A DNA stretch of 51,453 nt, from contig NZ_SNXO01000015.1 in the NCBI RefSeq assembly GCF_004362975.1, forward strand, positions 1 to 51,453, read 5' to 3'. Every line of letters begins with the position of its first letter. The first letter of the stretch is position 1. A program made the translations under genes and the position numbers. Below are positions 26,743-47,229 of the stretch, piece by piece. The notes below the pieces were generated by a model. That model made no database searches, was not told the DNA's origin, and saw only the letters and a list, made by a program, of their open reading frames with translations. The DNA comes from Aminicella lysinilytica (lineage in GTDB: Bacteria > Bacillota > Clostridia > Peptostreptococcales > Anaerovoracaceae).

Positions 26743-26762
26743 TAAGAAGGAGGTACGAATAA

Positions 26763-27599: not shown

Positions 27600-27628
27600 A
27601 AATATAGAAGGAAAGAAAGGAAGACTTT

Positions 27629-30320: not shown

Positions 30321-30350
30321 CTCTCGCTTGGTTCTTGAAAGGACAGGAAA

Positions 30351-31115
30351 ATGAAGATAAAAACATATCGAATCATAATTGCCATATTAGGTATCGTGTT
30401 TCTTGTAAGTATGGGAGCAGTGGTAAAGAACTACTTGGATTCTCAAAAGCAGCAGGAATTATATAATGACCTTGCAGAAGTTGTGGAAACAGAACCAGAG
30501 AAAGAGGAAAAGCCAATGATTTATGACGGAGATACAGAGTTTCTACTAGATTATCAGGAACTATATCTTCAGAACAATGATATGGTTGGGTGGATAAAAG
30601 TAGAAGATACAAAAATCAATTATCCTGTGGTTCAGTCAAAATATGCACCAGACTTCTACTTAAAGCATAAGTTTGATAAATCATATTCAGAATATGGGTG
30701 TCCTTATGTGCAGGAGAATTGTGATGTAGACAAACCTAGCGACAATCTCATCATCTATGGCCATCATATGAATGATGGCTCGATGTTTGCCGAACTTACG
30801 GAATATGAGAGTAAAGGATTTTATGAAAATCATAAGACAATCACTTTTGACAGTGTAGCACAACACAGAGAGTACGAGATTGTTGCAGTGTTTAAAACCG
30901 TTGCTTATTCCAGTGACGGATTCCAATATTATCGTTTTGTAGACGCTGAAAATAGTGAGGACTACGATAATTATATCGAAAAATGCAAGAAATTAGCCTT
31001 ATATGAAACAGGAGTTTCTGCCCAATACGGAGATAAACTTATTACCTTATCTACCTGTGAATATTCCCATAATAATGGCAGATTCGTTGTAGTAGCAAAA
31101 TTAAAAACAACATAG
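30351..31115 (+). CDS. srtB: Class B sortase
   Basis: The 254-aa enzyme has one N-terminal membrane anchor (about residues 6-27) and an extracellular sortase domain. The catalytic triad is visible: His138 in YGHHMNDGSMF, Cys236 in TLSTCEYS and Arg244 in GRFVV. The NDMVGWIKVEDTKINYPVVQ segment and the extra helix before the Cys are class B features. It cleaves sorting signals and links proteins to peptidoglycan or to each other. The only sorting-signal protein in the window is the adhesin at 5906, whose TPKTG motif is not the canonical class B NPQTN. Confidence 0.9.
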   Translation: MKIKTYRIIIAILGIVFLVSMGAVVKNYLDSQKQQELYNDLAEVVETEPEKEEKPMIYDGDTEFLLDYQELYLQNNDMVGWIKVEDTKINYPVVQSKYAPDFYLKHKFDKSYSEYGCPYVQENCDVDKPSDNLIIYGHHMNDGSMFAELTEYESKGFYENHKTITFDSVAQHREYEIVAVFKTVAYSSDGFQYYRFVDAENSEDYDNYIEKCKKLALYETGVSAQYGDKLITLSTCEYSHNNGRFVVVAKLKTT

Positions 31116-31127
31116 AAGGAGATGTGT

Positions 31128-31622
31128 ATGAGTAGCATTATTTACTTAATGGCATTGTTTATAGCAAAAGTTGTAGATAATGCACTAGGGACAACAAAAA
31201 CAATAATGATTCAAAGAAGTCGGTGGGTAATTGCAGGATTTGCTGTAATACTTTCCGACTTTATTTATTTCTGGATAACGAAGCGGGTTGTGTCTGCTGA
31301 CAACTCAATTGCAATGCTTGTAGTAGCAGTTGCAGGTGGAGTTGGATGTTCTTTGGCTTGTTTTGTTAATGAAAAACTGTCAAAGGATAAAACTTATGTG
31401 AATGTGATTATGTCAGATAATCAGGATGAGATGAAGAAATTACGGGATTTTCTAGCACACCATCATATCACAAATGTTGCAACAGACAGTTACACATTGA
31501 ATTGGAATGACAAGACCATCACAATTACCGTTTATGCAGAAACAAAAGCCGAGAGCAGGTTAATCAACCAATTCATAAATAAGAGTTCTGTGAAATTCAA
31601 AAGAGTAATCCAGCAGAGCTAG
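31128..31622 (+). CDS. DUF5698/DUF2179-like membrane protein
   Basis: The 164-aa protein starts at ATG 31128 (AAGGAGA at 31116-31122; the in-frame ATG 31122 overlaps the RBS). Three hydrophobic helices lie in the first 85 residues, with the IAKVVDNALGTTKTIMIQR pattern typical of DUF5698/UPF0316 proteins. A C-terminal ferredoxin-like DUF2179 domain follows (VNVIMSDNQDEMKKLRDFL... TVYAETKAESRLI). Function is unknown; a membrane sensor role is a guess. It lies between sortase and wall hydrolase genes in the transfer operon. Confidence 0.72.
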   Translation: MSSIIYLMALFIAKVVDNALGTTKTIMIQRSRWVIAGFAVILSDFIYFWITKRVVSADNSIAMLVVAVAGGVGCSLACFVNEKLSKDKTYVNVIMSDNQDEMKKLRDFLAHHHITNVATDSYTLNWNDKTITITVYAETKAESRLINQFINKSSVKFKRVIQQS

Positions 31623-31634
31623 AAAGGAGGCTCT

Positions 31635-33368
31635 ATGGCAGATATAAAAACAAAAGATGTGATAAAAGGCACAATCAAAACTTTAGACCGAGCTGCCATT
31701 GCGACGGATAGAGTAAAACACGCTTATGTAACAACAAAAGATAAAGCAGAACAAGTGGTACGGACAGATGAAAGCTCTGGTGGAGAGTATGCTTCTAATA
31801 AAGCTTCAGCAGGACTATCTGCTGGGACACGCAGAGGAATACAGACTTTTGATAAAGTCGGCAGAGAAAGCACCAAAACTACGATTGACAATGTGAAGAA
31901 AACAGCCGAATTCACAAAAGAGAAAGTAGCAAAAACAAAGCAAAACATAGAGAAGTTTAAGTATAAGAGAGCTGAACAATCACTGAAAAGACAATCTGGA
32001 AAAGCACCAAATCAATCTATCAGAACAGCAAAAGAAGTTGATAAGAATATAAAGCGGTCTGTAAGGTCAACGGGAAATAAAACCATTAAACGTGGAATAA
32101 AAGCACCTGCTAAAACTACAAGGAGATACTTAAAGACAGCGGAAAAGACTTCAAAGACAGCAATCAAAACCACAGAGCAGAGTGCAAAAGTGGTAAAGAA
32201 CACTGCTAAGACAAGCGTGAAGGCTACTCAAAGGGCAGCTCGTGCAACAAAGAAAGCAGCAGAAACAACAGCGAGAGGTGTGAAAGCTGCAACCAAAGCC
32301 ACAATTCAAGCAGTGAAGGCAATTATCGCAAGTACCAAAGCTCTTATTACTGCAATTATTGCAGGAGGTTGGGTAGCAGTTGTAATTGTTGTTATTTGTG
32401 TGCTACTGGGTGCGGCGGTCTCTCTATTTGGAGGAGGGACTGAAAATTCGGGATATACTCCTGTAAGTCAAGAGGTGGAAGCCTATACACCGACAATTAC
32501 CAAGTATGCGAAGCAGTATGGCATACCTGAGTATGTAGAACTGATTAAGGCAGTTATGATGCAAGAAAGCGGTGGCAGAGGGAATGACCCAATGCAGGCG
32601 GCAGAGGGAGCATTTAACACGAGATACCCTAAGCAACCAAATGGTATTCAAGACCCTGATTACTCCATCCAATGTGGAATTCAGGAACTAAAAGCTGCTC
32701 TTAATTCCGCAGGTGTAAAAAATCCAATTGATATGGAAAATATCAAACTGGCATTACAAGGCTACAACTTCGGAAATGGATATATTACTTGGGCGAAGAA
32801 GAATTATGGTGGATACTCTTATGCAAATGCAGTGGAATTTTCCACAAACCAAGCTAAAAAATTAGGCTGGGACAGTTACGGGGATACGCTATATGTATCT
32901 CACGTTTTAAGATATTATCCTTATGGTCGAGCTTTTACCAGTGGTGGTAATCAAGCGATTATCGAAGTTGCGTTATCTCAACTTGGGAACAAGGGAGGAC
33001 AACCTTATTGGTCGTGGTATGGATTTGATTCTCGTGTGGAATGGTGTGCCTGCTTTGTATCTTGGTGTGCAGACCAAAGTGGATATATTGAACAAGGCAT
33101 TATCCCTAAGTATTCCTTGTGTAGTGATGGAGTAAACTGGTTTAAGAAAAATAAGCAATGGGAAGATAGAAATGCAACCCCGCCTACGGGAGCAATTATT
33201 TTCTTCGACTGGGGGAACGATGGAACAATTGACCATACAGGACTTGTAGAAAAATGCGAGAATGGTAAGGTTTATACTGTCGAGGGTAACTCAGGAGATA
33301 TGTGTAGGCAAAGAGAATACGCAGTAGGAAGTAGCGTAATTTATGGTTATGGAATACCTGCATATTAG
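31635..33368 (+). CDS. Membrane-anchored lysozyme-like/CHAP wall hydrolase (CwlT/VirB1-like)
   Basis: The 577-aa protein has about 230 N-terminal residues of low-complexity Lys/Thr/Ala-rich cytoplasmic sequence, then one membrane span (about 236-265). A lysozyme-like transglycosylase domain follows (YGIPEYVELIKAVMMQESGG with the catalytic Glu; ...SIQCGIQELK; LALQGYNFG). The C-terminal CHAP/amidase-type domain has Cys in EWCACFVSWCA, His in IDHTGLVE and Asn in EGNSGD. It locally opens peptidoglycan so the conjugation channel can be built. It is the last recognisable transfer gene before the cargo island. Confidence 0.9.
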   Translation: MADIKTKDVIKGTIKTLDRAAIATDRVKHAYVTTKDKAEQVVRTDESSGGEYASNKASAGLSAGTRRGIQTFDKVGRESTKTTIDNVKKTAEFTKEKVAKTKQNIEKFKYKRAEQSLKRQSGKAPNQSIRTAKEVDKNIKRSVRSTGNKTIKRGIKAPAKTTRRYLKTAEKTSKTAIKTTEQSAKVVKNTAKTSVKATQRAARATKKAAETTARGVKAATKATIQAVKAIIASTKALITAIIAGGWVAVVIVVICVLLGAAVSLFGGGTENSGYTPVSQEVEAYTPTITKYAKQYGIPEYVELIKAVMMQESGGRGNDPMQAAEGAFNTRYPKQPNGIQDPDYSIQCGIQELKAALNSAGVKNPIDMENIKLALQGYNFGNGYITWAKKNYGGYSYANAVEFSTNQAKKLGWDSYGDTLYVSHVLRYYPYGRAFTSGGNQAIIEVALSQLGNKGGQPYWSWYGFDSRVEWCACFVSWCADQSGYIEQGIIPKYSLCSDGVNWFKKNKQWEDRNATPPTGAIIFFDWGNDGTIDHTGLVEKCENGKVYTVEGNSGDMCRQREYAVGSSVIYGYGIPAY

Positions 33369-33549: not shown

Positions 33550-35274
33550 TTGGATAGAAAATATTTTGAATTATTAAAAACAATAAAGACAGATGAAGTT
33601 GCATTTAAATTAGCTAATACATTGAGAACAATTGAACCAATGGATTCAATTCACGCAAAATCAATTTCCATAGCAATGGTGTTAAGAGAATTGATAAAAA
33701 CAGAAGGCGTTGTTGACATCGCACAAGTAATAGAAAAAATAGAGTTGCCAGAAGATACACTAAAAATATTAAAAGATTTTGTTATGGATTCTTTCGATAT
33801 TATTGAGAACTATAGGGGAAAATTTACATTAGAACAATTGCTGGCTTATATTCTATTTGATAATTCTATGGAGGATGGAAAGAGAAGTGAATGTACTACA
33901 CCTGTAGGATTATCTCGTCTGGCAAATGAAATACTAGATGTGGAAACAACGGATAATGTGCTTGAATTATGTTCAGGACTTGGTGGCTTTGCTGTTGAAC
34001 AATATGGAAGAGGAGAGTGTAATTCATATCTTGGGATTGAATTGAACTTTATTGCTAAATATATTGCAGACATAAAAGCCTCAATCTTAGGTGAGAACTA
34101 TTCATTTGTTTTAAGTGATGCTTTTGAATATAGAGTTACAAGAAAAGCGGATAAACTTTTTGCAAACTATCCATTTAATCTAAAACTGTTATCAATGAAT
34201 GGTCAAAAGGAAAATATACAAAATATGCTTAAAATAAGTGAAGATATTACTCAAAGGGCATCTTCTGATTGGCTATTTAATGCAACTTTAATAGAACAGA
34301 TGAAAGACGATGGTAAGGCTGTTGCCATTATGACTAATGGAAGTAGTTGGAATAGAAATGATGAAAAAATCAGGAAATACTTTATCGAAAATGGTTACAT
34401 CGAAGCGGTAATTGCATTACCAACGAAACTTTTTTCATCAACAATGATTGGTACTACAATGATTGTTTTTAGCAACAACAACAAAACAATCAGATTAGTA
34501 GATGCTCGTGAAGTGTGTACTTCTGAAAGAAGAAATAACGTTTTGAAAGATAAAGATATTGCAGAGATTATAAGCTTATTATCTCAGGATTCAAAAATAT
34601 CTGTTAAAAAAGGGGTAGAGGATTTTGCGGATAATGAATATATTTTAAATCCTGTAAGATATTTTGAAGAAGTGCCTGAAATTAAAAATGGTGTAGAGTT
34701 TGATACGATTATTAAGAATATTACTAGAGGTTCTCAACTGAAGGCGGCAGATATTGAATCATTAAAATCAGAAGAAGAAACCGATTATCAGTATCTTATG
34801 CTTTCAAATATAAGCGAAGGCATATTAGAACTAGAGAATAAGCAGTTCCTTAAAGAAATTCCATCTAAAATGGATAAATATTGTGTACCTAACAATTCAA
34901 TAGTTCTATCTAAAACTGGAACACCAACATTTAAGTCAGCGGTGGTATCTGTTGCCAAAGGGAAAAAATTACTTGCAAATGGGAACATTTTTGTTATTGA
35001 GCTAGATGAAAGTAAAGTCAAACCATTTTATATACAAGCATTCTTTGCTAGTGAAATAGGTGTTATAACGATGAAAAGTATAAGCTCTGGCTCTAATATT
35101 TCAACAATTTCGCTGGATAAATTAAAGAAAATGATTGTTCCATTACCTAGTTTAAAAGAACAGGAGGTTATTGCGAACAAGTATGCAGCTTCAATGGATG
35201 AATTGATTTTACTCAGAAAAAAGATTGAAAAGATAACCGCAAAGATGGTTCACATTTTCGATGAGGAGGTGTAA
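33550..35274 (+). CDS. N6-adenine methylase fused to an HsdS-like target-recognition domain
   Basis: This 574-aa protein starts at TTG 33550 (AAAGGAGG eight bases upstream). Residues about 90-360 are an HsdM-type methylase: TPVGLSRLANEIL, motif I VLELCSGLGGF at about 137-147, and motif IV ANYPFNL at about 202-208 (NYPF instead of NPPF). The last ~170 residues look like one HsdS half: ITRGSQLKAADIESL, YLMLSNISEG, VLSKTGTPTF, then STISLDKLKKMIVPLPSLKEQ and a coiled-coil end. Methylation and specificity are thus on one chain, but there is no nuclease. With the next gene it forms a two-gene cassette under its own regulated promoter. It could be an orphan protective methylase or the modification half of an unrecognised system. 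Confidence 0.82.
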   Translation: MDRKYFELLKTIKTDEVAFKLANTLRTIEPMDSIHAKSISIAMVLRELIKTEGVVDIAQVIEKIELPEDTLKILKDFVMDSFDIIENYRGKFTLEQLLAYILFDNSMEDGKRSECTTPVGLSRLANEILDVETTDNVLELCSGLGGFAVEQYGRGECNSYLGIELNFIAKYIADIKASILGENYSFVLSDAFEYRVTRKADKLFANYPFNLKLLSMNGQKENIQNMLKISEDITQRASSDWLFNATLIEQMKDDGKAVAIMTNGSSWNRNDEKIRKYFIENGYIEAVIALPTKLFSSTMIGTTMIVFSNNNKTIRLVDAREVCTSERRNNVLKDKDIAEIISLLSQDSKISVKKGVEDFADNEYILNPVRYFEEVPEIKNGVEFDTIIKNITRGSQLKAADIESLKSEEETDYQYLMLSNISEGILELENKQFLKEIPSKMDKYCVPNNSIVLSKTGTPTFKSAVVSVAKGKKLLANGNIFVIELDESKVKPFYIQAFFASEIGVITMKSISSGSNISTISLDKLKKMIVPLPSLKEQEVIANKYAASMDELILLRKKIEKITAKMVHIFDEEV

Positions 35275-35276
35275 CA

Positions 35277-35780
35277 GTGCTTGAATATGAAGAATTAGAG
35301 GAAATAATAGATACAGTTACATCTAAAATCACATTGGCAAATCGTATGGGAGAGTTAGAAACTTTATTAGAAAAATGGGAATTACTCGATTTGATAAGAA
35401 GTGAGCCTGTTTATGAAACTAAAAAAGATGGCATTATTTTAGTGATTGGAGATTCAGAAGTTAAAGAGAACAATCTGGATGGAATAATAAAAAGTTTGGG
35501 ACTCGATAAAAATAGGTTTGAATTTTGTTTGGGATATGATAAACCCAAAACATATCAGTACAGTAAGCTGCAATATAACACGAATTATAGAGCTGTTATA
35601 TTCGGTCCAGTACCTCACAGTAGCACAGGGAAAAAGGATAGTGGAAGCGTAATTGCGGAAATGAAATCTCACGAAGGGTATCCAAGAGTTGAAGTATTAA
35701 GTAGCAATCACGCACTCAAAATTACAAAGACTAACTTTAAAAATAAGTTAGAAGAATTGATAAGCGAGAATTACATATAA
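35277..35780 (+). CDS. Unknown partner of the methylase-TRD protein (167 aa)
   Basis: It starts at GTG 35277, two bases after the preceding stop, with AGGAGG at 35264-35269, so it is translationally coupled to the methylase. Residues 1-45 are an acidic coiled-coil-like helix (EELEEIIDTVTSKITLA). Residues 50-125 look like a small Rossmann-like fold (GIILVIGDSEVKENNLDGI, then NYRAVIFGPVPHSSTGKKDS). The C-terminus is basic (HALKITKTNFKNKLEEL). The GPVPHSS-G-K segment could bind a phosphate or nucleotide. No nuclease motif is evident and I do not recognise the family. It might be the effector, an inhibitor or a cofactor-binding subunit. Confidence 0.72.
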   Translation: MLEYEELEEIIDTVTSKITLANRMGELETLLEKWELLDLIRSEPVYETKKDGIILVIGDSEVKENNLDGIIKSLGLDKNRFEFCLGYDKPKTYQYSKLQYNTNYRAVIFGPVPHSSTGKKDSGSVIAEMKSHEGYPRVEVLSSNHALKITKTNFKNKLEELISENYI

Positions 35781-36153: not shown

Positions 36154-36172
36154 AATATGGAGGTTGCTAATA

Positions 36173-37678
36173 ATGGCAGAAAAGAACAATGCAAATATAG
36201 GATTTGAAAAGCAAATTTGGGATGCAGCTTGTGTTTTATGGGGACATATTCCTGCGGCAGAATACAGGAAGGTAATTGTAGGGTTAATATTCTTACGCTA
36301 TATTTCAAGTGCATTTGAGAAAAAATATGATGAGCTTGTTGCTGATGGCGATGGCTTTGAAGATGATAGAGATGCATACATAGAAGATAATATATTCTTT
36401 GTACCAGAAGAAGCTCGTTGGAATAAAATATCTTCTTCTGCACATACGCCTGAAATTGGAACAGTTATTGATGACGCAATGAGAGCTATTGAAAAAGAAA
36501 ACGCAAGTCTAAAAAATGTTTTACCTAAGAATTATGCAAGTCCGGATTTGGATAAGAGAGTATTAGGTGATGTTGTTGACTTGTTTACAAATATGGATAT
36601 GGGTGACACTGAAGAAAGCAAAGATTTATTAGGTCGTACATATGAGTATTGTATTAAAGAATTTGCAGCATACGAAGGCACAAAGGGCGGAGAATTTTAC
36701 ACGCCACAAAGTATCGTTAAAACAATCGTAGAAATCCTAAAGCCATTTGCTAATTGTCGTGTATATGACCCTTGCTGTGGTTCAGGTGGTATGTTTGTAC
36801 AGAGTGCAAAATTTATCCAAGCTCATAATGGAAAGCGTGAAGAAATAGCTGTATATGGTCAAGAATCAAATGCTGATACTTGGAAAATGGCTAAGATGAA
36901 TATGGCGATACGTGGTATTGACGCAGATTTTGGCTCATTCCAAGCAGACACTTTTTTCAATGACTTACATAAGACACTTAAAGCAGATTTTATTATGGCA
37001 AATCCTCCCTTTAATCTTTCTAATTGGGGACAAGATAAGTTGAAAGAAGATGTTCGTTGGAAATATGGAACACCTCCTGCTGGAAATGCCAACTATGCTT
37101 GGATACAGCATATGATTCACCATCTTGCACCAAACGGAAAGATAGGTCTTGTACTTGCGAATGGTGCATTGTCATCACAGAGTAGTGGTGAAGGAGATAT
37201 TCGTAAAAAGATTATTCAAGCTGACCTTGTAGAGGGGATTGTTGCATTACCAACACAGTTATTTTACAGTGTTACTATTCCAGTTACATTGTGGTTTATT
37301 AGTAAGAATAAAAAGCAAAAAGGAAAAACTCTCTTTATTGATGCCAGAAAAATGGGATATATGGTAGACCGTAAACATAGAGACTTCACTGATGATGATA
37401 TTAAGAAACTTGCGGATACTTTTGAAGAATTCCAGAACGGAACACTTGAAGATGTAAAAGGCTTTTGCTCTGTTGCTGATTTGCAGACCATCGAAAAACA
37501 AGACTTTATTCTTACTCCTGGTAGATATGTAGGTATTGAGGAGCAAGAAGATGATGGAGAACCATTTGAAGAAAAGATGGGAAGATTGACCTCTGAATTA
37601 TCTGATATGTTTGCTAAATCACACGAATTGGAAGAAGAAATTCGTAAGAAGTTGGGGGCGATTGGATATGAAATTTAA
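36173..37678 (+). CDS. hsdM: Type I restriction-modification methyltransferase subunit
   Basis: The 501-aa protein starts at ATG 36173 (GGAGG at 36159-36163). It has the HsdM N-terminal helical domain (AACVLWGHIPAAEYRKVIVG) and the N6-adenine methylase core: GGEFYTPQSIVKTIVEIL, motif I YDPCCGSGGMF at about 198-208 and motif IV ANPPFN at about 275-280, both canonical. A C-terminal helix for HsdS contact ends the chain. M2S1 methylates adenine in a split sequence set by HsdS, and with HsdR forms the nuclease. It overlaps the first hsdS by 11 nt. Confidence 0.95.
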   Translation: MAEKNNANIGFEKQIWDAACVLWGHIPAAEYRKVIVGLIFLRYISSAFEKKYDELVADGDGFEDDRDAYIEDNIFFVPEEARWNKISSSAHTPEIGTVIDDAMRAIEKENASLKNVLPKNYASPDLDKRVLGDVVDLFTNMDMGDTEESKDLLGRTYEYCIKEFAAYEGTKGGEFYTPQSIVKTIVEILKPFANCRVYDPCCGSGGMFVQSAKFIQAHNGKREEIAVYGQESNADTWKMAKMNMAIRGIDADFGSFQADTFFNDLHKTLKADFIMANPPFNLSNWGQDKLKEDVRWKYGTPPAGNANYAWIQHMIHHLAPNGKIGLVLANGALSSQSSGEGDIRKKIIQADLVEGIVALPTQLFYSVTIPVTLWFISKNKKQKGKTLFIDARKMGYMVDRKHRDFTDDDIKKLADTFEEFQNGTLEDVKGFCSVADLQTIEKQDFILTPGRYVGIEEQEDDGEPFEEKMGRLTSELSDMFAKSHELEEEIRKKLGAIGYEI

Positions 37679-38243
37679 TGAGAGCAGCCTATATAATATT
37701 CAATCTTCAGTTTTAGGAGAAAGACGTTCTTTGTATGAACTTGCAAATTGGAAAAATGGAATTGCGTTTAAAAAAATCAATTTTTCCGATACGGGAGTTC
37801 CAGTTATTAAGATTGCCGAGTTAAATAATGGTATCGGCGGAACAACGGCATACACTCAACAGATTTTTTCAGAAGATGTTCATTTAAAAAGAGGAGATTT
37901 GCTTTTTTCTTGGTCTGGGAATCCGCAAACTTCAATAGATATTTTTAGATTTAAATTAGAAGAAGGCTGGCTTAACCAGCATATTTTTAAGATAACACCA
38001 TATGAGGAAATAGTTGATAGAGATTTTTTCTATTTTTTAATGAAAAATCTTAAACCATACTTTACACAAATTGCTATCAATAAACAGACAACTGGTTTAG
38101 GTCACGTAACTATAGCAGATATAAAGAAAATTAGTATTGTTATACCATCTTTAGATTTACAGAGAGAAATTGTGTCATATATCAAACCGATTGATGACAA
38201 AATAGAGTTAAATAATGAGATAAACAATAATTTAGTGGCTTAA
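37668..38243 (+). CDS. hsdS: HsdS N-terminal half, slot 1 of the shufflon (OFF state)
   Basis: The 191-aa product starts at ATG 37668 within the end of hsdM. It contains one target-recognition domain (about residues 15-165, GIAFKKINFSDTGVPVIKIAELNNG split by further motifs) and the start of the central conserved helix (IDDKIELNNEINNNL). It then ends in VA-stop inside a recombination site (38220-38235). A full HsdS has two such halves. The missing second half lies just downstream on the other strand (38240-38965) and would be joined in frame by one inversion, giving about 425 aa. So this is a switched-off gene, not a dead one. Whether the half protein itself dimerises with HsdM is unknown. Confidence 0.88.
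   Translation: MKFNESSLYNIQSSVLGERRSLYELANWKNGIAFKKINFSDTGVPVIKIAELNNGIGGTTAYTQQIFSEDVHLKRGDLLFSWSGNPQTSIDIFRFKLEEGWLNQHIFKITPYEEIVDRDFFYFLMKNLKPYFTQIAINKQTTGLGHVTIADIKKISIVIPSLDLQREIVSYIKPIDDKIELNNEINNNLVA
38220..38235 (+). repeat. Shufflon site A
   Basis: ATAAACAATAATTTAG in plus orientation at the end of the slot 1 hsdS half-gene, in frame (I-N-N-N-L). It is also the outer end of a 61-bp inverted repeat (38220-38280) matching 41201-41261 with 4 mismatches. Confidence 0.85.
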
Positions 38244-38965
38244 AGGTCGATGTCGGAAACATCAAGCTCGCCGGACATCAATTTGGGTAAAAGGGTATCT
38301 CGGAGTTGAACCAATCGCTGATTTTCAAGCTGATTACTTATAATGGTTTCAAACATCGGAAGTGTTATCTCAGAAAAAGCCGTATTTACTTTTTCAGATG
38401 GCAAAACAGTTTGCGAAGTTTTAATCTCAGAAGATGATAGGTTTACTTGCACCCCGCTATTTGCTCTGCTACGCAGGTCAACAAGAAAATCCGTGCTATT
38501 AGTAAGTAAATAAATAAAAGGATAAGTCACTCCTTTGTATCCATTTGCTCTGAGGTGTCCAACTCGTTGATTGACAATGTACTCATTATCAAGTGGCATA
38601 ATGGCTGTGTTACCTAATATTGCCACATTGTCTTTCATATCTGTCATTGCCATAAGTATATCGCCTTTTTTGAGAACGAATTTCTTTAATTTTGATGCAA
38701 GACTTTTTGGATACCAGCTTTTTGTTCCATCAGGAATAAAACCACCGCCACGAGCAATATGCCCTTGTTTGAATACTTGATAACAGTCTGGTGACGGTTC
38801 ATTTAAAAGCTCCTTACTCTTAAACGCATAGCCATTTTGAAAATCAGCAATTTTTTCGAGAGGAACAATTTCCCAGTCAGAAGGCATAGTTCCATTGAAT
38901 GGTTCGAAATCAACGAACCACGATTTAAAAAGGATTTTGGCTTGTTGCTCTAAATTATTGTTTAT
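38240..38965 (-). pseudogene. hsdS: Silent inverted HsdS C-terminal half (exchangeable cassette)
   Basis: On the minus strand a continuous frame runs from the site at 38965 to the stop at 38240-38242 (241 codons). It begins INNNLEQQAKILFKSWFVDF, the central conserved region of HsdS, then MPSDWEIVPLEKIADFQNG (second TRD) and ends LPKLMSGELDVSDIDL like the active gene. It has no RBS or promoter of its own at the 5' end and an internal ATG at 38887 only. It is a storage cassette: inversion between sites A and B would fuse it in frame to the slot 1 N-terminal half. Its stop overlaps the stop of slot 1 in the shared TTAA. It is intact, so pseudogene here means silent, not decayed. Confidence 0.88.
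38950..38965 (-). repeat. Shufflon site B
   Basis: The reverse complement of ATAAACAATAATTTAG, starting the silent C-terminal half-gene on the minus strand. Inverted relative to site A, so recombination A x B flips 38220-38965. Confidence 0.85.
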
Positions 38966-39058
38966 AAGCTAACTATCCCATAACTCTTGTGGGTGGCAAG
39001 AGTTAATATCGGGAACTACCGCCCCGTAGTTGTTCTCTTAAATTAAGGAGAAAGAACT
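38966..39058 (+). promoter_or_regulatory. Leader of the recombinase gene with two hairpins
   Basis: TAACTCTTG (38981-38989) pairs with CAAGAGTTA (38997-39005), and AACTAC (39014-39019) with GTAGTT (39026-39031) followed by GTTCTCTT. An RBS AAGGAG and the ATG at 39059 follow. The two stems may form an attenuator or operator that limits recombinase synthesis. No clear -35/-10 is seen. Confidence 0.4.
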
Positions 39059-40039
39059 ATGAAACAGAGAATAATTAAAGAAATTGTTGAAGAAATGTTA
39101 CCAGTCCTAAATAATGGACAAGCTGAAAAATTACAAGAGGTTTTATTGCATACTTTATGGAAATATGAAATCGCTAAGGTCGATGTGGATAAAGAAAATG
39201 AGCAAGATTTTGTTGAATTATTTTTATCTGCAAAAAGAATAGAGGGCTGTTCAGAAAAGTCATTGAATTATTATGAAGCAACAATCAACGCAATGCTAAA
39301 TAATCTCGATAAAGGGGTAAAAGAGATTGTGACTGATGATATTAGAGGGTATTTGACAGAATATCAGACTACAAAGAAATCAAGTCGGGTAACGATTGAT
39401 AATATTAGGCGTATCCTTTCATCATTCTTCTCTTGGCTAGAAGATGAGGACTACATTTTAAAAAGTCCAGTAAGAAGAATACATAAGGTCAAGACGGTAA
39501 GTAATATCAAAGAAACATATACGGATGAGAATCTGGAAATAATGCGTGATAATTGCTTAGAAATAAGGGATTTAGCCTTAATAGATATGCTGGCTTCAAC
39601 TGGAATGCGTGTCGGTGAATTGGTGCTTTTAAATCGTGAGGACATCAATTTTGAAGAGCGAGAATGTGTGGTATTTGGTAAAGGAAGCAAAGAACGAGTT
39701 GTTTACTTCGATGCAAGAACTAAAATACATTTGCAAAACTATTTAAACAATAGAACAGACGATAATTCAGCTCTGTTTGTTTCTCTTAAAGCCCCACATA
39801 AAAGATTACAAATAGGTGGTGTGGAAGTAAGAATCCGTAATATTGGTAAGCAGCTTGGTATTAACAAAATGCACCCACATAAATTTAGGAGAACACTTGC
39901 AACAATGGCAATTGACAAAGGTATGCCGATTGAACAATTACAAAGGTTGCTTGGACACCAACGAATAGATACGACATTGCAATATGCAATGGTTAAGCAG
40001 AGTAATGTTAAGATTGCTCATAGAAAATACATTGGATAG
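39059..40039 (+). CDS. Tyrosine recombinase (hsdS invertase, Xer-like)
   Basis: The 326-aa protein has an N-terminal SAM-like core-binding domain (about 55-150, SAKRIEGCSEKSLNYYEATI) and the catalytic domain. Arg184 lies in TGMRVGELVLL; HPHKFRRT contains His274 and Arg277, GH follows in LLGHQR, and nucleophile Tyr309 lies in LQYAMV. It sits inside the hsdS locus between sites B and C, the place where PsrA/XerD-like recombinases that shuffle hsdS genes are found. It is therefore the likely enzyme acting on the four ATAAACAATAATTTAG sites. It is too embedded in the RM locus to be the ICE integrase, although that cannot be wholly excluded. Confidence 0.9.
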   Translation: MKQRIIKEIVEEMLPVLNNGQAEKLQEVLLHTLWKYEIAKVDVDKENEQDFVELFLSAKRIEGCSEKSLNYYEATINAMLNNLDKGVKEIVTDDIRGYLTEYQTTKKSSRVTIDNIRRILSSFFSWLEDEDYILKSPVRRIHKVKTVSNIKETYTDENLEIMRDNCLEIRDLALIDMLASTGMRVGELVLLNREDINFEERECVVFGKGSKERVVYFDARTKIHLQNYLNNRTDDNSALFVSLKAPHKRLQIGGVEVRIRNIGKQLGINKMHPHKFRRTLATMAIDKGMPIEQLQRLLGHQRIDTTLQYAMVKQSNVKIAHRKYIG

Positions 40040-40052
40040 AAAGGACTTAATT

Positions 40053-41240
40053 ATGGCTGAATGGAAAGAGTGTACTATTTCAGAAATAGGAACAGTTGTG
40101 GGAGGAGCGACTCCATCAACAAAGATAGTTGAAAATTATGAAGGTGGAACAATCGCTTGGATAACTCCAAAAGATTTATCAACTTTTAAGGGGAGATACA
40201 TAAGTAATGGGGATAGAAATATTACTGAAATGGGCTTAAAAAGTTGTTCTACACAGTTATTACCTAAAGATACGGTATTGTTTTCCTCAAGAGCGCCCAT
40301 CGGATATGTTGCTATTGCGGAAAATGAAGTGTGTACAAATCAAGGATTCAAAAGTGTAATTCCAAACTCCGATACAGACCCATTGTTCCTTTTTTATCTC
40401 TTGAAATACAATAAAAGTAAAATTGAAAATATGGGAAGCGGAACAACCTTTAAAGAGGTTTCAGGAAACACTATGAAATCAATTAAAGTTAATATTCCTT
40501 GTGAATATGAGGAACAAAAAAAGATTGCCTCTGTTTTAGATGCAATTGACAACAAGATAGAAGAAAATGAAAAAGTAAACAATAATTTAGAGCAGCAAGC
40601 ACGAGCACTTTACCAAGAATGGTTCTGTGATTTCACACCGTTTGGCGGTTTAATGCCAAATGATTGGAAAACTGGCAAACTAAAAGATATTTTACGTCTA
40701 AGACGAGAATCAATAAAGGCTGGAGACAATCCTACTATGCCATACTTGCCCATTGATGTCATCCCGATGAACACGTTTGCGGTTAGTTATTTCAAATCAA
40801 ACGATGAAGCGCAAAGTAGCCTTATTACTTTTGATAAAGATGACATCGTGATTGGAGCAATGAGGGTGTATTTCCATAGAGTAATACTCGCACCATGCAA
40901 GGGCATAACTAGAACTACTTGCTTTACGCTAACTCCGTATGATTCATCATTTTTATCATATGCGCTCCTTTGTTGCGACCGAGACAGTAGCATTGATTAT
41001 GCACAAGCAACGTCTAAAGGTTCTACCATGCCTTATGCTATTTGGGAAGGTGGTCTTGGTGATATGGAAATCGTTATTCCAACACCAAAAGTTGCATTGG
41101 ACTTTAACGATTTAACTCAGCCAATGTTGCGTCAAATCCAATCATCCTATTTTGAGAATCGTGATTTGAGGATTATGCGCGATAGTCTTCTTCCAAAACT
41201 GATGTCCGGAGAGCTTGATGTCTCCGAAATCGACCTTTAA
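40053..41240 (+). CDS. hsdS: Full-length HsdS specificity subunit, slot 2 (ON state)
   Basis: The 395-aa protein starts at ATG 40053 (AAAGGA upstream), 13 bp after the recombinase. Two TRDs are visible: TRD1 about residues 3-165 (WKECTISEIGTVVGGATPST..., then AITPKDLS-type sequence) and TRD2 about 205-375 (MPNDWKTGKLKDILRLRRES). They are joined by the central conserved helix IDNKIEENEKVNNNLEQQAR that carries site C, and the chain ends LPKLMSGELDVSEIDL. It sets the split target sequence of the type I enzyme. The C-terminal half is bounded by inverted sites C and D, so it too can be flipped out, leaving a truncated protein, or exchanged with the silent half. Confidence 0.92.
   Translation: MAEWKECTISEIGTVVGGATPSTKIVENYEGGTIAWITPKDLSTFKGRYISNGDRNITEMGLKSCSTQLLPKDTVLFSSRAPIGYVAIAENEVCTNQGFKSVIPNSDTDPLFLFYLLKYNKSKIENMGSGTTFKEVSGNTMKSIKVNIPCEYEEQKKIASVLDAIDNKIEENEKVNNNLEQQARALYQEWFCDFTPFGGLMPNDWKTGKLKDILRLRRESIKAGDNPTMPYLPIDVIPMNTFAVSYFKSNDEAQSSLITFDKDDIVIGAMRVYFHRVILAPCKGITRTTCFTLTPYDSSFLSYALLCCDRDSSIDYAQATSKGSTMPYAIWEGGLGDMEIVIPTPKVALDFNDLTQPMLRQIQSSYFENRDLRIMRDSLLPKLMSGELDVSEIDL
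40576..40590 (+). repeat. Shufflon site C
   Basis: TAAACAATAATTTAG (15 of the 16 bp of sites A, B and D), plus orientation, within the central conserved region of the active hsdS, in the same reading frame as site A. Confidence 0.85.
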
Positions 41241-41261
41241 GCCGCTAAATTATTGTTTATT
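41201..41261 (-). repeat. Shufflon site D within a 61-bp inverted repeat
   Basis: The reverse complement of 38220-38280 with 4 mismatches in 61 bp. It covers the last codons of the active hsdS (MSGELDVSEIDL-stop) and ends with the 16-bp site at 41246-41261, facing site C. Confidence 0.87.
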
Positions 41262-41305: not shown

Positions 41306-41677
41306 ATGGAAAATGAAGAAAAAATTATATTTAATATTTTGTCAGGACTTCCTGATAAATGGAAATCCTTTTTTGGATTATATACCCAGTACATAGGTTA
41401 TCTTACAGCAGATATGGCGAAAACACTATTAGTAATAAAACGCTGTTCATATTTTGACATTGATTTTGATTATTCAAATATTGATTTAGATAAAATAAAT
41501 ATAAAGGCACTTGAGTATGAGCTATCTGAACTACCATATAGAGATAAAGAAGGATTAGATGCAGTTATTCCTGTATTGTGGGAATATCTTGATGAATTTG
41601 ACTTGTGTGAAATATCTGATGAGTCTTGGAATGGACTTGTTAAATTTTTAGATAATAAAATCGCAAAGGAGAAATGA
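41306..41677 (+). CDS. Acidic protein of unknown function between hsdS and hsdR
   Basis: The 123-aa protein starts at ATG 41306 (AAGGAG upstream) and ends 3 bp before hsdR. It is clearly acidic (about 25 Asp/Glu against 14 Lys/Arg), with runs such as DFDYSNIDLDKINI and WEYLDEFDLCEISDESWN. It has no signal or membrane span and looks mostly helical. I do not recognise the family. Position suggests a modulator of the type I enzyme; an acidic protein could mimic DNA or bind HsdR, but this is inference. Confidence 0.72.
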   Translation: MENEEKIIFNILSGLPDKWKSFFGLYTQYIGYLTADMAKTLLVIKRCSYFDIDFDYSNIDLDKINIKALEYELSELPYRDKEGLDAVIPVLWEYLDEFDLCEISDESWNGLVKFLDNKIAKEK

Positions 41678-41679
41678 TT

Positions 41680-44600
41680 ATGCCAAGTTTATATACGGAA
41701 GCAGATTATGAAAACTCAGTAATTGAGCTTTTCACAAATGATATGGGATATGAATATGCATATGGACCAGATATTGAAAGAGATTTCAATGTTCCTTTTC
41801 ACGAGGAGATATTACTGGAGTATATGTATCGTTTGAATAGAAGTCTGCCTGATGATGCGATACAAGACGCACTATTTAAATTGAAGAACTTTGAAAATGG
41901 TGAGCTTGTTCAGAAGAATGCAATCTTTATGGATTACTTACAGAACGGTATTCCAGTGAGATATGTAGATAAGGGAGAGGAACGTTCTTCTATTGTATAT
42001 TTGGTTGATTACAAAGAGACGGATAATAACTCCTTTATCGTTGCAAATCAATGGACATTTATTGAAAACAGTAATAAACGACCAGACATTATCCTATTTC
42101 TTAATGGGCTTCCAGTTGTACTTGTGGAACTCAAATCTCCTTCAAGAGAAGAAACTGATGCGTCAGCGGCGTATAGACAATTAAGAAACTATATGCAGGA
42201 GATTCCGTCAATGTTCATTTATAACGCAATATGCGTAATGAGTGACCAACTTACATCAAAGGCAGGTACAATAACCTCTGGTGAAGACCGATTTATGGAA
42301 TGGAAAACCAAAGACGGAAGTTATGAAAATACGCAGTATGCTCAGTTTGATACTTTCTTTGAGGGTATGTTCCAAAAGGAAAGACTGCTGGATATTATCA
42401 AGAACTACATCTGTTTTTCTAATGAGGGTATAAACTCCTTTAAAATACTTGCAGGATACCATCAATACTTTGCTGTAAGCAAAGCCATTGAATCCACAAA
42501 AAGAGCCATAGTTACCGATGGTAAGGGTGGTGTATTTTGGCATACACAAGGAAGTGGCAAATCACTTTCTATGGTTTTTTATGCTCATTTATTACAAGAA
42601 GCATTGGATAGTCCAACTATTGTTGTGCTTACAGATAGAAATGACCTTGATGACCAGTTGTATGGACAGTTTTCTAAGTGTAAAGATTTCTTGCGTCAAG
42701 ACCCTATTCAAGCTGAAAGCAGAGATAATCTAAAGTCATTATTGGCAGGCAGACAAGCAAACGGAATTATCTTTACGACTATGCAGAAGTTTGAGGAATC
42801 ATCAGAACCACTATCCGAAAGAAAAAATATAATTGTAATGGCTGATGAAGCACACAGAGGTCAATACGGATTAGCAGAAAAAATCAAGATAACAAAGAAT
42901 GAAGATGGTGAAGATGTAGCCAAAAGAGTTGTGGGAACAGCTCGTATCATTAGAAATTCTTTACCAAATGCAACATATATCGGATTTACTGGAACACCTA
43001 TATCATCCAAAGATAGAAGTACAAGAGAAGTCTTTGGAGATTACATAGATATATATGATATGACACAAGCAGTTGAAGATGGAGCAACCAGACCAGTTTA
43101 TTATGAAAGCCGAGTAATTAAACTTAATTTAGATGAAGATACACTGAAACTGATTGATACGGAATATGACATTATGGCTTCCAATGCTGATGAGGAAGTT
43201 GTTCAAAAAAGTAAAAAAGAACTTGGCAAAATGGAAGCTTTGCTGGGAAATGATAATACTGTAAATTCCCTTGTAAATGATATTCTTGACCACTATGAGA
43301 ACAATAGAGAGAACCTTTTGACTGGTAAGGCTATGATAGTAGCTTATTCCAGACCTATTGCAATGAAAATATATAAAAGGATTCTTGAACTTAGACCTGC
43401 TTGGACAGAAAAAGTAGGCGTAGTTATGACTTCGGGAAACAATGACCCTGAAGAATGGCGGGAGATTATCGGGAATAAGCAACATAAAGACGAGCTGGCA
43501 AGAAAGTTTAAAGATAATCATAGTCCGATGAAGATAGCAATTGTTGTTGATATGTGGCTCACTGGTTTTGATGTGCCATCTCTTGCAACAATGTATGTTT
43601 ATAAGCCGATGAGTGGACATAATTTAATGCAGGCTATCGCCAGAGTAAATCGTGTATTTGGAGATAAAGAAGGTGGACTGGTAGTAGATTATGTTGGTAT
43701 TGCAACAGCATTAAAGCAGGCAATGAATGATTATACAACTCGTGATAAAAAGAATTATGGTGATACCGATGTTGCCAAAGTTGCATATCCTAAGTTCTTG
43801 GAAAAACTTTCAATTTGCCGAGACAAGTTCCACGGATTTGATTATAGTAAGTTTTCAACTGGTTCAGACCTTGAAAGGGCAAGAACAATAAGTGGAGCAG
43901 TAAACTTTATTATTAGCAGAGAGAAAATTGAGGAGAAGGATTCATTTGTAAAAGAAGCGTTAATGCTACATCAGGCATTGTCCTTATGTTCGTCTCTTGT
44001 TTGTGAAGAAGATAGATTTGAAGCAGCTTTCTTTGAATCAGTTCGTGTCCTTATATTAAGATTAACCAGTGCAGGTGGGGGCGGTAAAATATCTCTGCCA
44101 GAAATGAACTCAAGAATCAATGAACTGCTGAAAGAGAGCATTAAGAGTGATGGCGTTATAAATCTTTTCTCTGACATTAAGGAAGAGTTTTCATTGTTTG
44201 ACCCTAAATTCTTACAAGAAATCGCCAATATGAAAGAGAAAAACTTGGCAGTTGAACTACTTAAAAAACTGATTTCTGAACAGGTATCCGTATATAAGAG
44301 AACAAATGTTGTAAAGTCAGAAAAATTCAGCGAGCTTATACAAAAGGCATTGAATGCCTATCTGAATGGAATGCTTACAAATGAAGAAGTCATTGAAGAA
44401 ATGCTGAAACTGGCAAAACAACTGGCAGAAGCACAAAAAGAAGGCGATGAGCTTGGATTAACAGCAGATGAACTTGCATTCTACGATGCATTGACAAAGC
44501 CTAGAGCTATTAAAGACTTCTATGAGAATGAAGAATTGATTGCAATTACAAAAGAACTTGCAGACGCTCTACGCAAGAACAAGACTATTGACTGGCAAAA

Positions 44601-44745
44601 GAGAGAATCTGCCAGAGCAAAAATGCGAATGCTTATTAAGAAACTTTTGAAGAAGCACAAATATCCACCAGAGGGTATGGAAGATGCAGTACAAACTGTA
44701 ATGACACAATGTGAGTTATGGACAGATAATGTAATGGAGGCATAG
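41680..44745 (+). CDS. hsdR: Type I restriction endonuclease subunit R
   Basis: The 1021-aa protein starts at ATG 41680 (AAAGGAG at 41665-41671; ATG 41674 is too close). The nuclease domain has RPDIILFLNGLPVVLVELKS at about 132-152, a PD-(D/E)XK site with E-x-K. The SF2 translocase has FWHTQGSGKSLSM at about 286-298, MADEAHRGQYG, GFTGTPI, and DMWLTGFDVPSLATMY with QAIARVNRVF. The C-terminal helical domain contacts HsdM/HsdS. It moves DNA through the complex and cuts at a distance from unmethylated sites. The chain is full length with all motifs intact. Confidence 0.94.
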   Translation: MPSLYTEADYENSVIELFTNDMGYEYAYGPDIERDFNVPFHEEILLEYMYRLNRSLPDDAIQDALFKLKNFENGELVQKNAIFMDYLQNGIPVRYVDKGEERSSIVYLVDYKETDNNSFIVANQWTFIENSNKRPDIILFLNGLPVVLVELKSPSREETDASAAYRQLRNYMQEIPSMFIYNAICVMSDQLTSKAGTITSGEDRFMEWKTKDGSYENTQYAQFDTFFEGMFQKERLLDIIKNYICFSNEGINSFKILAGYHQYFAVSKAIESTKRAIVTDGKGGVFWHTQGSGKSLSMVFYAHLLQEALDSPTIVVLTDRNDLDDQLYGQFSKCKDFLRQDPIQAESRDNLKSLLAGRQANGIIFTTMQKFEESSEPLSERKNIIVMADEAHRGQYGLAEKIKITKNEDGEDVAKRVVGTARIIRNSLPNATYIGFTGTPISSKDRSTREVFGDYIDIYDMTQAVEDGATRPVYYESRVIKLNLDEDTLKLIDTEYDIMASNADEEVVQKSKKELGKMEALLGNDNTVNSLVNDILDHYENNRENLLTGKAMIVAYSRPIAMKIYKRILELRPAWTEKVGVVMTSGNNDPEEWREIIGNKQHKDELARKFKDNHSPMKIAIVVDMWLTGFDVPSLATMYVYKPMSGHNLMQAIARVNRVFGDKEGGLVVDYVGIATALKQAMNDYTTRDKKNYGDTDVAKVAYPKFLEKLSICRDKFHGFDYSKFSTGSDLERARTISGAVNFIISREKIEEKDSFVKEALMLHQALSLCSSLVCEEDRFEAAFFESVRVLILRLTSAGGGGKISLPEMNSRINELLKESIKSDGVINLFSDIKEEFSLFDPKFLQEIANMKEKNLAVELLKKLISEQVSVYKRTNVVKSEKFSELIQKALNAYLNGMLTNEEVIEEMLKLAKQLAEAQKEGDELGLTADELAFYDALTKPRAIKDFYENEELIAITKELADALRKNKTIDWQKRESARAKMRMLIKKLLKKHKYPPEGMEDAVQTVMTQCELWTDNVMEA

Positions 44746-44751: not shown

Positions 44752-47229
44752 ATGGAAAAACAAAACAACAAATCAAATGCTGCCTTTTTACATTGGATGA
44801 AACCTATCTTGACTGCATTAAAGGAATTAGAGGGTCAAGGTAAGCCACAGGATGTTCGTTCCATTATTGCAAAAAATGAACACCTGACAGAAGAAGAACT
44901 TTCAGAAACGAGAGGGAAAAACAACGTTAATAAATTTGAAAATGAAGTTGCATTTGCCCGAAATTATCTTGTCGCAGGTGGATATATTGATAAAAGCACT
45001 TATGGTATATGGAAATTGACTGATGAAGGTTGGAATGTAGATATGACCGATAAGTTGGCATCTGATATATTTAAGCAAGGAGTTACAGAGATGAAAGAGA
45101 AAAGAGAAAGAGATGCAGATTATCAGTGGGTTGATTTCTATATGGAATTTGCCGATGTGTTACTGAAATTTAAGGATAATCGCTCAGCTTTAATTGAAAA
45201 AATTAAAGAGGTGTATGCAAGCATAAATTTAAGATTGCCAAAATTGGAAGAAAATAATGAAATTGTGGATATAGACCCTTTCACGATTTTTGCTCTGTTT
45301 AATAAAGGAATTACTAATGACAATAGAGTAAGGATTCTAACTGCAATAGCGAAAATATTTGATGTTAATGCGGAAGTTCCTGTTGCCTTTGATGGAATAC
45401 CTGTTGTGAATAATTTAAAAGCAACATTTTACTATTTTAAAGACGGAAGAGAAGAACAGGATATAGATAACCTTTGGGAACTGTTTTACAATGCTATCCA
45501 ATATGCCGATTCACTAAATGAACCATATAAGAGTAATATGCAAAAATATTATGATGAAGTGAAGAAGCAAAAGGGTGTAAATTGGAATATTACAATGGGT
45601 TTATATTGGATAAGACCAAATACATTTATTAACCTTGACTCCCGTAACAGAGAATTTTTGAATGATGTTGATAATATGCCACATTATTTTACTGTCATAT
45701 TTTCCAATGTGAATAAAGGACTTCCTGATGGTGCAAGTTATTTCTTTATGTGTGAGCAGGCAAGGAACGCTTTAAAGAACGAAGAATATCCATATCATAG
45801 TTTTCCAGAACTATCCTATTACGCTTGGAAATCAACAACAGATGAAAATGGCAATGAAGTACCATCATCATCGGTTGATTCTAATGTAAAAGAAACGGAT
45901 TACTGGATGTATTCTCCAGGCGACGGGGCAAGTATGTGGGATGAATTTAGCAAATCAGGCATAATGGGTATTGGCTGGGATGAGATTAGTAATCTTTCAG
46001 AGTTTAAAAGTAAGGATGCAATAAAAGAAAAGTTGAAAGCTACTTATGACGCAAGTTATTCATATAAAAATGCGGCACATTGTTTATGGCAATTTGCAAA
46101 CGAAATGAAAATCGGAGATATAATATTTGCCAAAAAAGGAATGCATAAAATTGTTGGAAGGGGTGTTGTGTCTTCGGAGTACATTTATGATGATAAACGA
46201 GAAGAATATCGTCATATTAGAAAAGTAAGTTGGGAAAAGATTGGTGAGTGGGAACTACCTAATCAGGCAGCTATGAAAACTTTAACCAATATCACTTCCT
46301 ATGCGGATACGGTAAATGAAATTCTTAACTTGTTTATAGATGAAACAGAAGAAATCACAGAAGAAAAAGATGTGAAATATCCACCGTATGATAAGAATGA
46401 ATTTCTTGATGAAGTTTTTATGGAAGAAGAGGTGTACAATACATTAGTAGGCTTGATTGAGACAAAATATAATGTAATACTGCAAGGCGCACCAGGAGTT
46501 GGAAAAACATTTGCAGCAAAACGGTTAGCCTATTCTATTATGGGCGAAAAGAATACAAGTCGAGTTTCGATGATACAGTTTCATCAAAGCTATTCATATG
46601 AGGATTTTATACAAGGTTATCGACCAGACAAGGCTGGCTTTAAGTTAGAAAATGGCACATTCTATGAATTCTGTAAAACAGCAGAGGAAGATGATGAACA
46701 TCCATATTTCTTTATAATTGATGAAATTAACAGAGGAAATTTAAGTAAGATATTAGGTGAGCTAATGATGCTTATTGAAAAGGATAAGCGTGGCGAGAAA
46801 ATAAAACTATTGTATAAGAATGAATGGTTTACAGTGCCTAAAAATATAAGAATCATTGGTATGATGAACACCGCAGATAGAAGTCTAGCACTTATGGATT
46901 ATGCCCTGAGAAGAAGATTTGCATTTTTTAATTTTGCACCAGCATTTTCATCAGAAGGATTCAAACGCTATGTTGCAGAAAAGAACAATGAGAAATTTGA
47001 GAAACTTATTTCACAAATTGAAAATCTGAATAAAGCCATATCCGATGATGAATCTCTTGGAGATGGATTTAGAATTGGACACAGCTATTTCTGTACTGAG
47101 AATGAAATTACTGATGAATGGCTTAAATCAGTTGTTGAATATGAGATTATTCCATTGATTCAAGAATACTGGTTTGACGAACCTACTAAAGTAAAGGATT
47201 GGTCTGAAACTTTAAGGAGAACAATTTAA
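44752..47229 (+). CDS. mcrB: McrB-type AAA+ GTPase with Mrr_N-like and EVE-like domains
   Basis: The 825-aa protein has an N-terminal winged-helix domain like the Mrr N-terminus (about 13-90, WMKPILTALKELEGQGKPQD and YLVAGGYID..YGIWKLTDEG) and a middle domain of unknown type (about 110-350). An EVE/PUA-like modified-base reader follows (about 385-505, YWMYSPGDGASMWDEF, GIGWDEI, GDIIFAKKGMHKIVGRG). The AAA+ motor has GAPGVGKTFAAKRL at about 579-592, FIIDEINRGNLSKI, and the McrB hallmark MNTADRS at about 704-710. McrB binds modified DNA and drives McrC nuclease with GTP. It overlaps mcrC by 1 nt and follows hsdR by 6 bp. Confidence 0.92.
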   Translation: MEKQNNKSNAAFLHWMKPILTALKELEGQGKPQDVRSIIAKNEHLTEEELSETRGKNNVNKFENEVAFARNYLVAGGYIDKSTYGIWKLTDEGWNVDMTDKLASDIFKQGVTEMKEKRERDADYQWVDFYMEFADVLLKFKDNRSALIEKIKEVYASINLRLPKLEENNEIVDIDPFTIFALFNKGITNDNRVRILTAIAKIFDVNAEVPVAFDGIPVVNNLKATFYYFKDGREEQDIDNLWELFYNAIQYADSLNEPYKSNMQKYYDEVKKQKGVNWNITMGLYWIRPNTFINLDSRNREFLNDVDNMPHYFTVIFSNVNKGLPDGASYFFMCEQARNALKNEEYPYHSFPELSYYAWKSTTDENGNEVPSSSVDSNVKETDYWMYSPGDGASMWDEFSKSGIMGIGWDEISNLSEFKSKDAIKEKLKATYDASYSYKNAAHCLWQFANEMKIGDIIFAKKGMHKIVGRGVVSSEYIYDDKREEYRHIRKVSWEKIGEWELPNQAAMKTLTNITSYADTVNEILNLFIDETEEITEEKDVKYPPYDKNEFLDEVFMEEEVYNTLVGLIETKYNVILQGAPGVGKTFAAKRLAYSIMGEKNTSRVSMIQFHQSYSYEDFIQGYRPDKAGFKLENGTFYEFCKTAEEDDEHPYFFIIDEINRGNLSKILGELMMLIEKDKRGEKIKLLYKNEWFTVPKNIRIIGMMNTADRSLALMDYALRRRFAFFNFAPAFSSEGFKRYVAEKNNEKFEKLISQIENLNKAISDDESLGDGFRIGHSYFCTENEITDEWLKSVVEYEIIPLIQEYWFDEPTKVKDWSETLRRTI

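What the first reader, a model, noticed from the sequence alone, without database searches (positions are those of the whole stretch)
37668..41261. Phase-variable type I specificity locus with two slots, two swappable halves and four mapped recombination sites
ATAAACAATAATTTAG (or 15/16 of it) occurs at 38220-38235 (+), 38950-38965 (-), 40576-40590 (+) and 41246-41261 (-). Each lies at the same reading frame position of the HsdS central helix or just after an HsdS stop, and a tyrosine recombinase is encoded between them. A x B inversion would fuse the truncated 191-aa slot 1 gene in frame to the silent minus-strand half, giving about 425 aa. C x D inversion would switch slot 2 off. Larger inversions would exchange the halves. 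The truncation in slot 1 (NNNLVA-stop) is built into the cassette end, so each slot is an ON/OFF switch as well as a specificity shuffler. In other hsdS shufflons usually one active gene samples silent ones; two ON/OFF slots, one each side of the recombinase, is less usual.
Basis: partly seen in the sequence, partly recalled or inferred. Interest (0 to 1): 0.85.

Follow-up and report, generated by a model that had tools for sequence, protein, structure and literature searches.

The report
One-of-four switch for restriction specificity
A bacterium carries a DNA-shuffling locus that can build four versions of a DNA-recognition protein from two front halves and two swappable back halves; in most relatives with an intact set of shuffling sites exactly one version is switched on, and the shuffling enzyme's gene starts with its own folded RNA.

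Summary
The locus belongs to a large Firmicutes family with a fixed plan: hsdM, N-half 1, A, cassette, B, recombinase, N-half 2, C, cassette, D. 'Two independent ON/OFF slots' does not fit that family. In 82 non-redundant loci with four matching sites the cassettes lie on opposite strands in 78, and in 16 of 16 loci fetched afterwards, so exactly one slot is ON, although the state changes as often as chance along the tree. In 10 incomplete or mismatched loci the rule is at chance (5 of 10). Lactococcus plasmids identical in the compared segments differ by exchanged cassettes. Best reading: a one-of-four specificity selector that exchanges cassettes between slots rather than flipping one at a time; selection against other states is a serious rival. 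A covarying, pseudoknotted RNA leader that pairs with the recombinase's ribosome site and matched no Rfam family is the other new element. No recombination, expression or methylation was observed directly.

The parts
36164..37678 (+). hsdM, modification subunit
   Evidence: PF02384 and PF12161
37668..38243 (+). N-half 1 (slot 1), 191 aa, ends NNNLVA-stop: OFF in this assembly
   Evidence: PF01420 over residues 20-189; frame
38220..38235 (+). site A, cassette exit side to its right
38236..38949 (-). left C-half cassette, coding on the minus strand, entry at B
   Evidence: PF01420 weak match in 38243-38962(-); 241 codons from site B
38950..38965 (-). site B
38978..39061 (+). structured RNA leader of the recombinase: P1 38982-38988/38998-39004; pseudoknot P2 38991-38996/39019-39024; P3 39029-39037/39048-39057, pairing with the ribosome site at 39045-39050
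   Evidence: covariation over 66 sequences; model match; fold z -4.0
39059..40039 (+). tyrosine recombinase, 326 aa
   Evidence: PF00589 1.6e-32, NF040815 235.6 bits against cut-off 220
40053..41240 (+). slot 2, full-length hsdS (N-half 2 joined to the right cassette), 395 aa: ON in this assembly
   Evidence: PF01420, PADLOC specificity models over most of its length
40575..40590 (+). site C, entry side to its right
40591..41244 (+). right C-half cassette
41245..41260 (-). site D, just after the hsdS stop
41674..44745 (+). hsdR, restriction subunit
   Evidence: TIGR00348 and PF11867

Best explanation
[quoted passage not shown] Two N-halves are fixed in place: one behind hsdM, one behind the recombinase. 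Two C-half cassettes, each with an entry end and an exit end that carries a stop, sit between sites A-B and C-D on opposite strands, so one N-half is joined to a C-half and the other is cut short. The recombinase exchanges the two cassettes between the slots. If they are aligned in parallel (A with C, B with D), the ON state moves to the other N-half; if antiparallel (A with D, B with C), the same N-half receives the other C-half. Both moves keep the cassettes on opposite strands and the recombinase in place, so four HsdS proteins are reached one at a time. Flipping one cassette alone is rare. Recombinase translation is held down by an RNA leader that pairs with its ribosome site. Shown: anatomy, sites, states in relatives, cassette exchange between near-identical plasmids, covariation of the RNA. 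Inferred: that this recombinase acts on these sites, that exchange is concerted or runs through short-lived intermediates, that the four proteins are active, and that the RNA represses.
For: Opposite strands in 78 of 82 non-redundant four-site loci (41 and 37 against 3 and 1; Fisher 1.5e-18) and in 16 of 16 non-duplicate loci fetched after the rule was noted (notes 30, 81); together 94 of 98. Leaving out five rows assigned by hand or with a broken frame: 73 of 77. The state is scattered on the recombinase tree (29 changes, shuffled mean 27.4), and in 15 independent pairs differing on the left the right changes the opposite way in 14.7 on average, the same way in none (median p 6e-5). Among Lactococcus plasmids with identical N-halves, recombinase and flank, L163 and L164 have exchanged and reversed cassettes. 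C-halves occur in the other slot in 47 of 82 similar pairs, N-halves in the other slot in 4 of 72. In six complete loci with hsdM on the other side (L055, L068, L119, L133, L136, L149) both N-halves abut the right cassette, so function does not fix the left one, yet all six are opposite. Of the five non-opposite incomplete loci, three have mismatched cores and may be locked (post hoc).
Against: Among 46 loci without four matching sites, ten inform on both cassettes and only five are opposite (L039, L067, L076, L081, L085); L042, L083, L107, L132, L150 are not, and L141 has three N-halves with two joined. Exceptions among complete loci: L082 both ON; L072, L125, L160 both OFF. L104/L105 and L190/L196 carry the same cassette reversed within one slot, which needs two exchanges or a double flip. 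L165 carries one cassette twice, which simple exchange does not give. The six reversed loci may be recent. No reads, PCR or methylomes were seen.
Confidence: 0.5

Rival explanations
1. Each cassette flips independently, but cells with two full HsdS proteins or with none are lost by selection, so assemblies show one ON.
For: Predicts the same table of states. Same-slot reversals are seen (L104/L105, L190/L196). Two specificities sharing one HsdM could leave sites unmethylated (general knowledge).
Against: Rare both-ON and both-OFF loci exist, so neither is lethal; both-OFF should cost little in culture. Six of six complete reversed loci are opposite where function leaves the left cassette free. 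Does not by itself explain cassette exchange between slots.
Confidence: 0.28
2. Parallel cassettes are unstable: they place similar ends as direct repeats, so the recombinase and N-half 2 are deleted and such loci drop out of a survey anchored on the recombinase.
For: A/C and B/D are direct pairs; cassette ends are similar (88 bases, 85%). My survey finds only loci that keep the recombinase.
Against: Sites A/C and B/D are direct pairs in every state, so deletion by the recombinase is possible in the common states too.
Confidence: 0.12
3. The locus is a frozen remnant: sites no longer recombine, and the family's pattern reflects old events spread by transfer.
For: Only one state of this locus is known; no strain pair was found for the window itself.
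Against: Four matching cores, open recombinase frame and intact N-halves in the window; identical plasmids with different arrangements in relatives.
Confidence: 0.1

Closest known systems
Pneumococcal cod/SpnIII locus with PsrA
   Same: Type I locus with a tyrosine recombinase beside hsdS genes and a 15-bp inverted repeat needed for inversion (passages of PMC7096588).
   Different: There one expressed hsdS draws on silent genes through three repeat pairs; here one short core at four places, two N-halves each able to be joined, and no silent full gene. The PsrA repeat sequence was not seen, so sites were not compared.
Pneumococcal tvr/SpnIV locus with TvrR
   Same: Recombinase between hsdS parts, excision and reintegration that reshuffles halves, and an RNA hairpin upstream of the recombinase that limits its expression (passages of PMC6265443).
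   Different: [quoted passage not shown] here both direct and inverted pairs exist and double-complete states are rare. Its attenuator is a terminator-like hairpin; the present leader is a pseudoknot that pairs with the ribosome site.
Listeria monocytogenes CC8 and CC4 phase-variable hsd loci
   Same: hsdS genes on both sides of an integrase, four specificities by swapping halves (passages of PMC4783014 and PMC7662400).
   Different: Two oppositely oriented hsdS genes, two repeat pairs (gene start and centre), one gene active and one without start; here N-halves are co-oriented and fixed and only C-halves move.
Inverted-repeat hsdS loci of the REBASE survey (Atack 2020)
   Same: Duplicated hsdS parts with inverted repeats and often a recombinase (Results section of PMC7394358).
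   Different: That survey required identical repeats of at least 20 bp; the present sites are 14-16 bp and may have been missed. I did not see its tables.

Membership tests
Type I restriction-modification locus | hsdR, hsdM and hsdS genes together | tested here: met
Phase-variable hsdS locus driven by a tyrosine recombinase | recombinase beside hsdS parts carrying matched sites in the same frame | tested here: met
Phase-variable hsdS locus driven by a tyrosine recombinase | rearrangement seen between otherwise identical loci | tested here: inconclusive
   met in related Lactococcus plasmids; no second copy of the window's own locus was found
Phase-variable hsdS locus driven by a tyrosine recombinase | changed methylation | not testable with these tools
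   needs methylome data
SpnIII/cod type | one expressed hsdS with silent full hsdS genes and several repeat classes | tested here: not met
   two N-halves, two C-half cassettes, one core at four places
tvr type | shuffling through direct repeats | tested here: inconclusive
   A/C and B/D are direct pairs, A/B, A/D, B/C, C/D inverted; which are used was not tested
RNA families of Rfam 15 | match at gathering score | tested here: not met
   best RF02980 19.3 bits against 49.9 in the window stretch; none at E up to 1 in 12 related loci

The most novel reading that the evidence does not exclude
A widespread family of type I systems in which a recombinase performs concerted two-cassette exchange, a natural cassette-exchange reaction that hops among exactly four specificities without passing through an all-off or double-on cell, under control of a dedicated pseudoknotted RNA switch on the recombinase mRNA.
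Probability: 0.35. Interest if true: 0.82.

Novelty: new variant of a known kind. Interest (0 to 1): 0.62.

Why it matters
Known hsdS shufflers are usually described as one expressed gene sampling silent parts. A switch that holds one product ON while changing which one would solve the obvious hazard of such systems: two competing specificities, or none. It makes a clear test possible: does a simple tyrosine recombinase couple two exchanges, or does selection clean up after independent flips? The RNA leader adds a control point for how often a bacterial population changes its epigenome and its phage barrier.

Tried and rejected
Independent ON/OFF slots: rejected as a description of the family because the two cassettes are not independent. 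A single inversion explaining the change between the two common states: by drawing out the crossings, A-D and B-C inversions keep each state and A-B or C-D alone break the rule, so two crossings are needed. A rule that only like ends recombine (entry with entry, exit with exit): it would forbid the change between the two common states, which the tree requires about 29 times. A promoter for the recombinase formed by the cassette end: looked at by eye, not general, dropped. Truncated N-halves acting as dimers: recalled precedent only, not tested. Known RNA family: not found. Literature: ten searches (one search returned no paper) showed no paper in their listings that describes this one-ON rule or an RNA leader of this kind; most were seen as listings only, and subscription journals are mostly not held.

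Choices that affect counts: four-site loci were by definition those sharing one core at + - + - places around the recombinase, so identity of the four cores within a locus is partly by construction. Of 134 loci scored, 88 qualified and 46 did not; L161, L168, L170, L171, L172 were fetched but not scored. Six duplicate rows were dropped from 88 to give 82. Orientations of L095, L097 and L127 were set by hand (in L097 the left cassette is runs of N), and L070 and L111 have a broken frame at D. In the later set 29 loci were fetched; 7 were identical to earlier ones, 16 scored, 6 not (L184, L185, L189, L206 no sites; L203 two sites; L207 runs of N). In L187 site D opens a long chance frame and was read as exit. 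The 66 RNA rows were picked by eye; a first alignment had two wrong coordinates and was replaced. P3 is shifted by one column in some rows of that alignment.

Full report
What is there. The window lies on one contig of a 2.29-Mb assembly. hsdM, a truncated N-half of hsdS, a C-half on the other strand, a tyrosine recombinase, a full-length hsdS and hsdR follow one another between 36164 and 44745. Four copies of a 16-bp sequence, one with a mismatch, lie at 38220, 38950, 40575 and 41245, two on each strand, and the 15-bp part is found nowhere else in the genome. The core reads TAAA-six bases-TTTA, an imperfect palindrome with an asymmetric centre, as expected of a tyrosine-recombinase crossover site (general knowledge). 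It falls on the codons for N-N-N-L of the HsdS central helix. In the present state slot 2 is joined and slot 1 ends seven codons into the site reading.

A family. Of 134 loci scored, 88 have four sites with one core in the order + - + - around the recombinase. Thirteen different six-base centres occur among the four-site loci (for example CAATAA, CAAGAA, CGATAA, CGAGAA, TGATAA, TCATCA). N-halves stay in their slot: of 72 pairs of similar N-halves only 4 are N1 with N2, while of 82 pairs of similar C-halves 47 lie in different slots (a few pairs come from near-identical plasmids).

The one-ON rule. Each cassette has an entry end (…LEQQA…) and an exit end that reads into a stop after a few codons in most loci. 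The strands of the left and right cassettes are +/- in 41, -/+ in 37, -/- in 3 and +/+ in 1 of 82 non-redundant loci. In the usual geometry the first two mean exactly one slot joined. I noted the rule before fetching more loci; of 29 fetched, 7 were duplicates, 16 of the other 22 could be scored, and all 16 obey it, 8 each way. The pattern is not shared ancestry: the state needs 29 changes on the recombinase tree, about as many as shuffled labels (27.4), and in 15 independent pairs that differ on the left, the right differs the opposite way in 14.7 on average and the same way in none.

Limits of the rule. I checked the incomplete loci last. Ten inform on both cassettes: five obey (L039, L067, L076, L081, L085, the last with a tandem copy of the recombinase and slot 2) and five do not (L042, L083, L107, L132, L150). 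L042, L107 and L150 have cores that no longer match within the locus; L083 and L132 are cut by contig ends. L141 has three N-halves, two of them joined. So the rule holds where four matching sites are present and is at chance elsewhere, in a small sample. That could mean that matching sites actively keep the rule, but this is a reading made after the fact.

Mechanism. Inversions A-D and B-C, and crossings A-C and B-D, relate different pairs of ends. Drawing them out, A-D with B-C exchanges the cassettes and keeps the state; A-C with B-D exchanges them and moves the ON state to the other N-half; A-B or C-D alone gives both ON or both OFF. Lactococcus plasmids show the first: L163 (same as L166) has P(+) left and Q(-) right, L164 has Q(+) left and P(-) right, and N1, N2, recombinase, the B-recombinase gap and 1.5 kb to the right are 100% identical. 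L165, identical in the same segments, has P on both sides, with slot 2 joined; that may reflect exchange between two plasmid copies or an assembly fault. L104/L105 and L190/L196 have one cassette reversed in place while the other differs; this needs two exchanges or a double flip. In six complete loci hsdM lies on the other side, so the right cassette serves both N-halves and the left serves none; function then does not fix the left strand, yet all six are opposite. This favours mechanism over selection but is a small number and the arrangement may be recent. I hold concerted or paired exchange at 0.5 and selection on independent flips at 0.28. The later check of incomplete loci widened the exceptions; it did not change which reading I prefer.

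The RNA leader. Between site B and the recombinase most Clostridia-type loci carry the same structure: a hairpin P1, whose loop pairs with a downstream strand (P2, a pseudoknot), and a stem P3 that pairs with the ribosome site. On 66 sequences picked from that list 93.5% of cells pair; 180 cells change on both sides against 62 in shuffles and at most 32 when partners are slid; 4 of 6 P2 pairs change on both sides with 98.7% pairing. The window's leader folds at -28.3 kcal/mol, z -4.0. A model found it in 7 of 291 genomes of the class, once each (stricter filters); 6 of the 7 lie directly before a full recombinase of this family and one before a remnant. It is in 75 of 80 genome-contig loci and in 13 of 22 later loci, and was not found in the lactic-acid-bacteria plasmid loci L159-L167. 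No Rfam family reached its threshold. Sequestration of the ribosome site suggests translational repression of the recombinase; ligand or partner is unknown. The tvr locus of pneumococcus limits its recombinase by another RNA device, a functional parallel.

Verdict. An ordinary R-M locus at first sight, but a member of a family with two features I found in no listing of ten literature searches: near-exclusive one-ON states across two slots, and a dedicated pseudoknotted leader. New variant of a known kind.

Noticed in passing
L046 (G000:C16:26000-42000), recombinase at 7738-8715(-): The same genome has a second type I locus with a sister recombinase (58% identity) between two co-oriented, apparently complete hsdS genes that share direct repeats of 72 nt (100%) and 76 nt (86%), resembling the direct-repeat plan of tvr.
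   Followed up: partly
L170 (Latilactobacillus sakei plasmid pRV500), 6948-8524: A two-site version: one C-half cassette between two N-halves on opposite strands, so either strand joins one of them.
   Followed up: no
window 33550-35780: A protein with an N6-methyltransferase domain fused to a specificity domain, followed by a 167-aa protein without Pfam or PADLOC match, just upstream of hsdM; L159-L162 have similarly annotated genes before hsdM.
   Followed up: no
window 41306-41677: A 123-aa protein between hsdS and hsdR with no match in Pfam, NCBIfam or PADLOC.
   Followed up: no
window 24510-33368 and 44752-48257: Conjugation genes (coupling protein, TraG-like ATPase, lysozyme-CHAP protein) upstream and an McrB/McrC pair downstream, suggesting a mobile element with a defence island.
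   Followed up: partly
L115 6050-6140 and L141 8779-8837: Weak second matches to the RNA leader model (29.3 and 25.6 bits) away from the main one.
   Followed up: no
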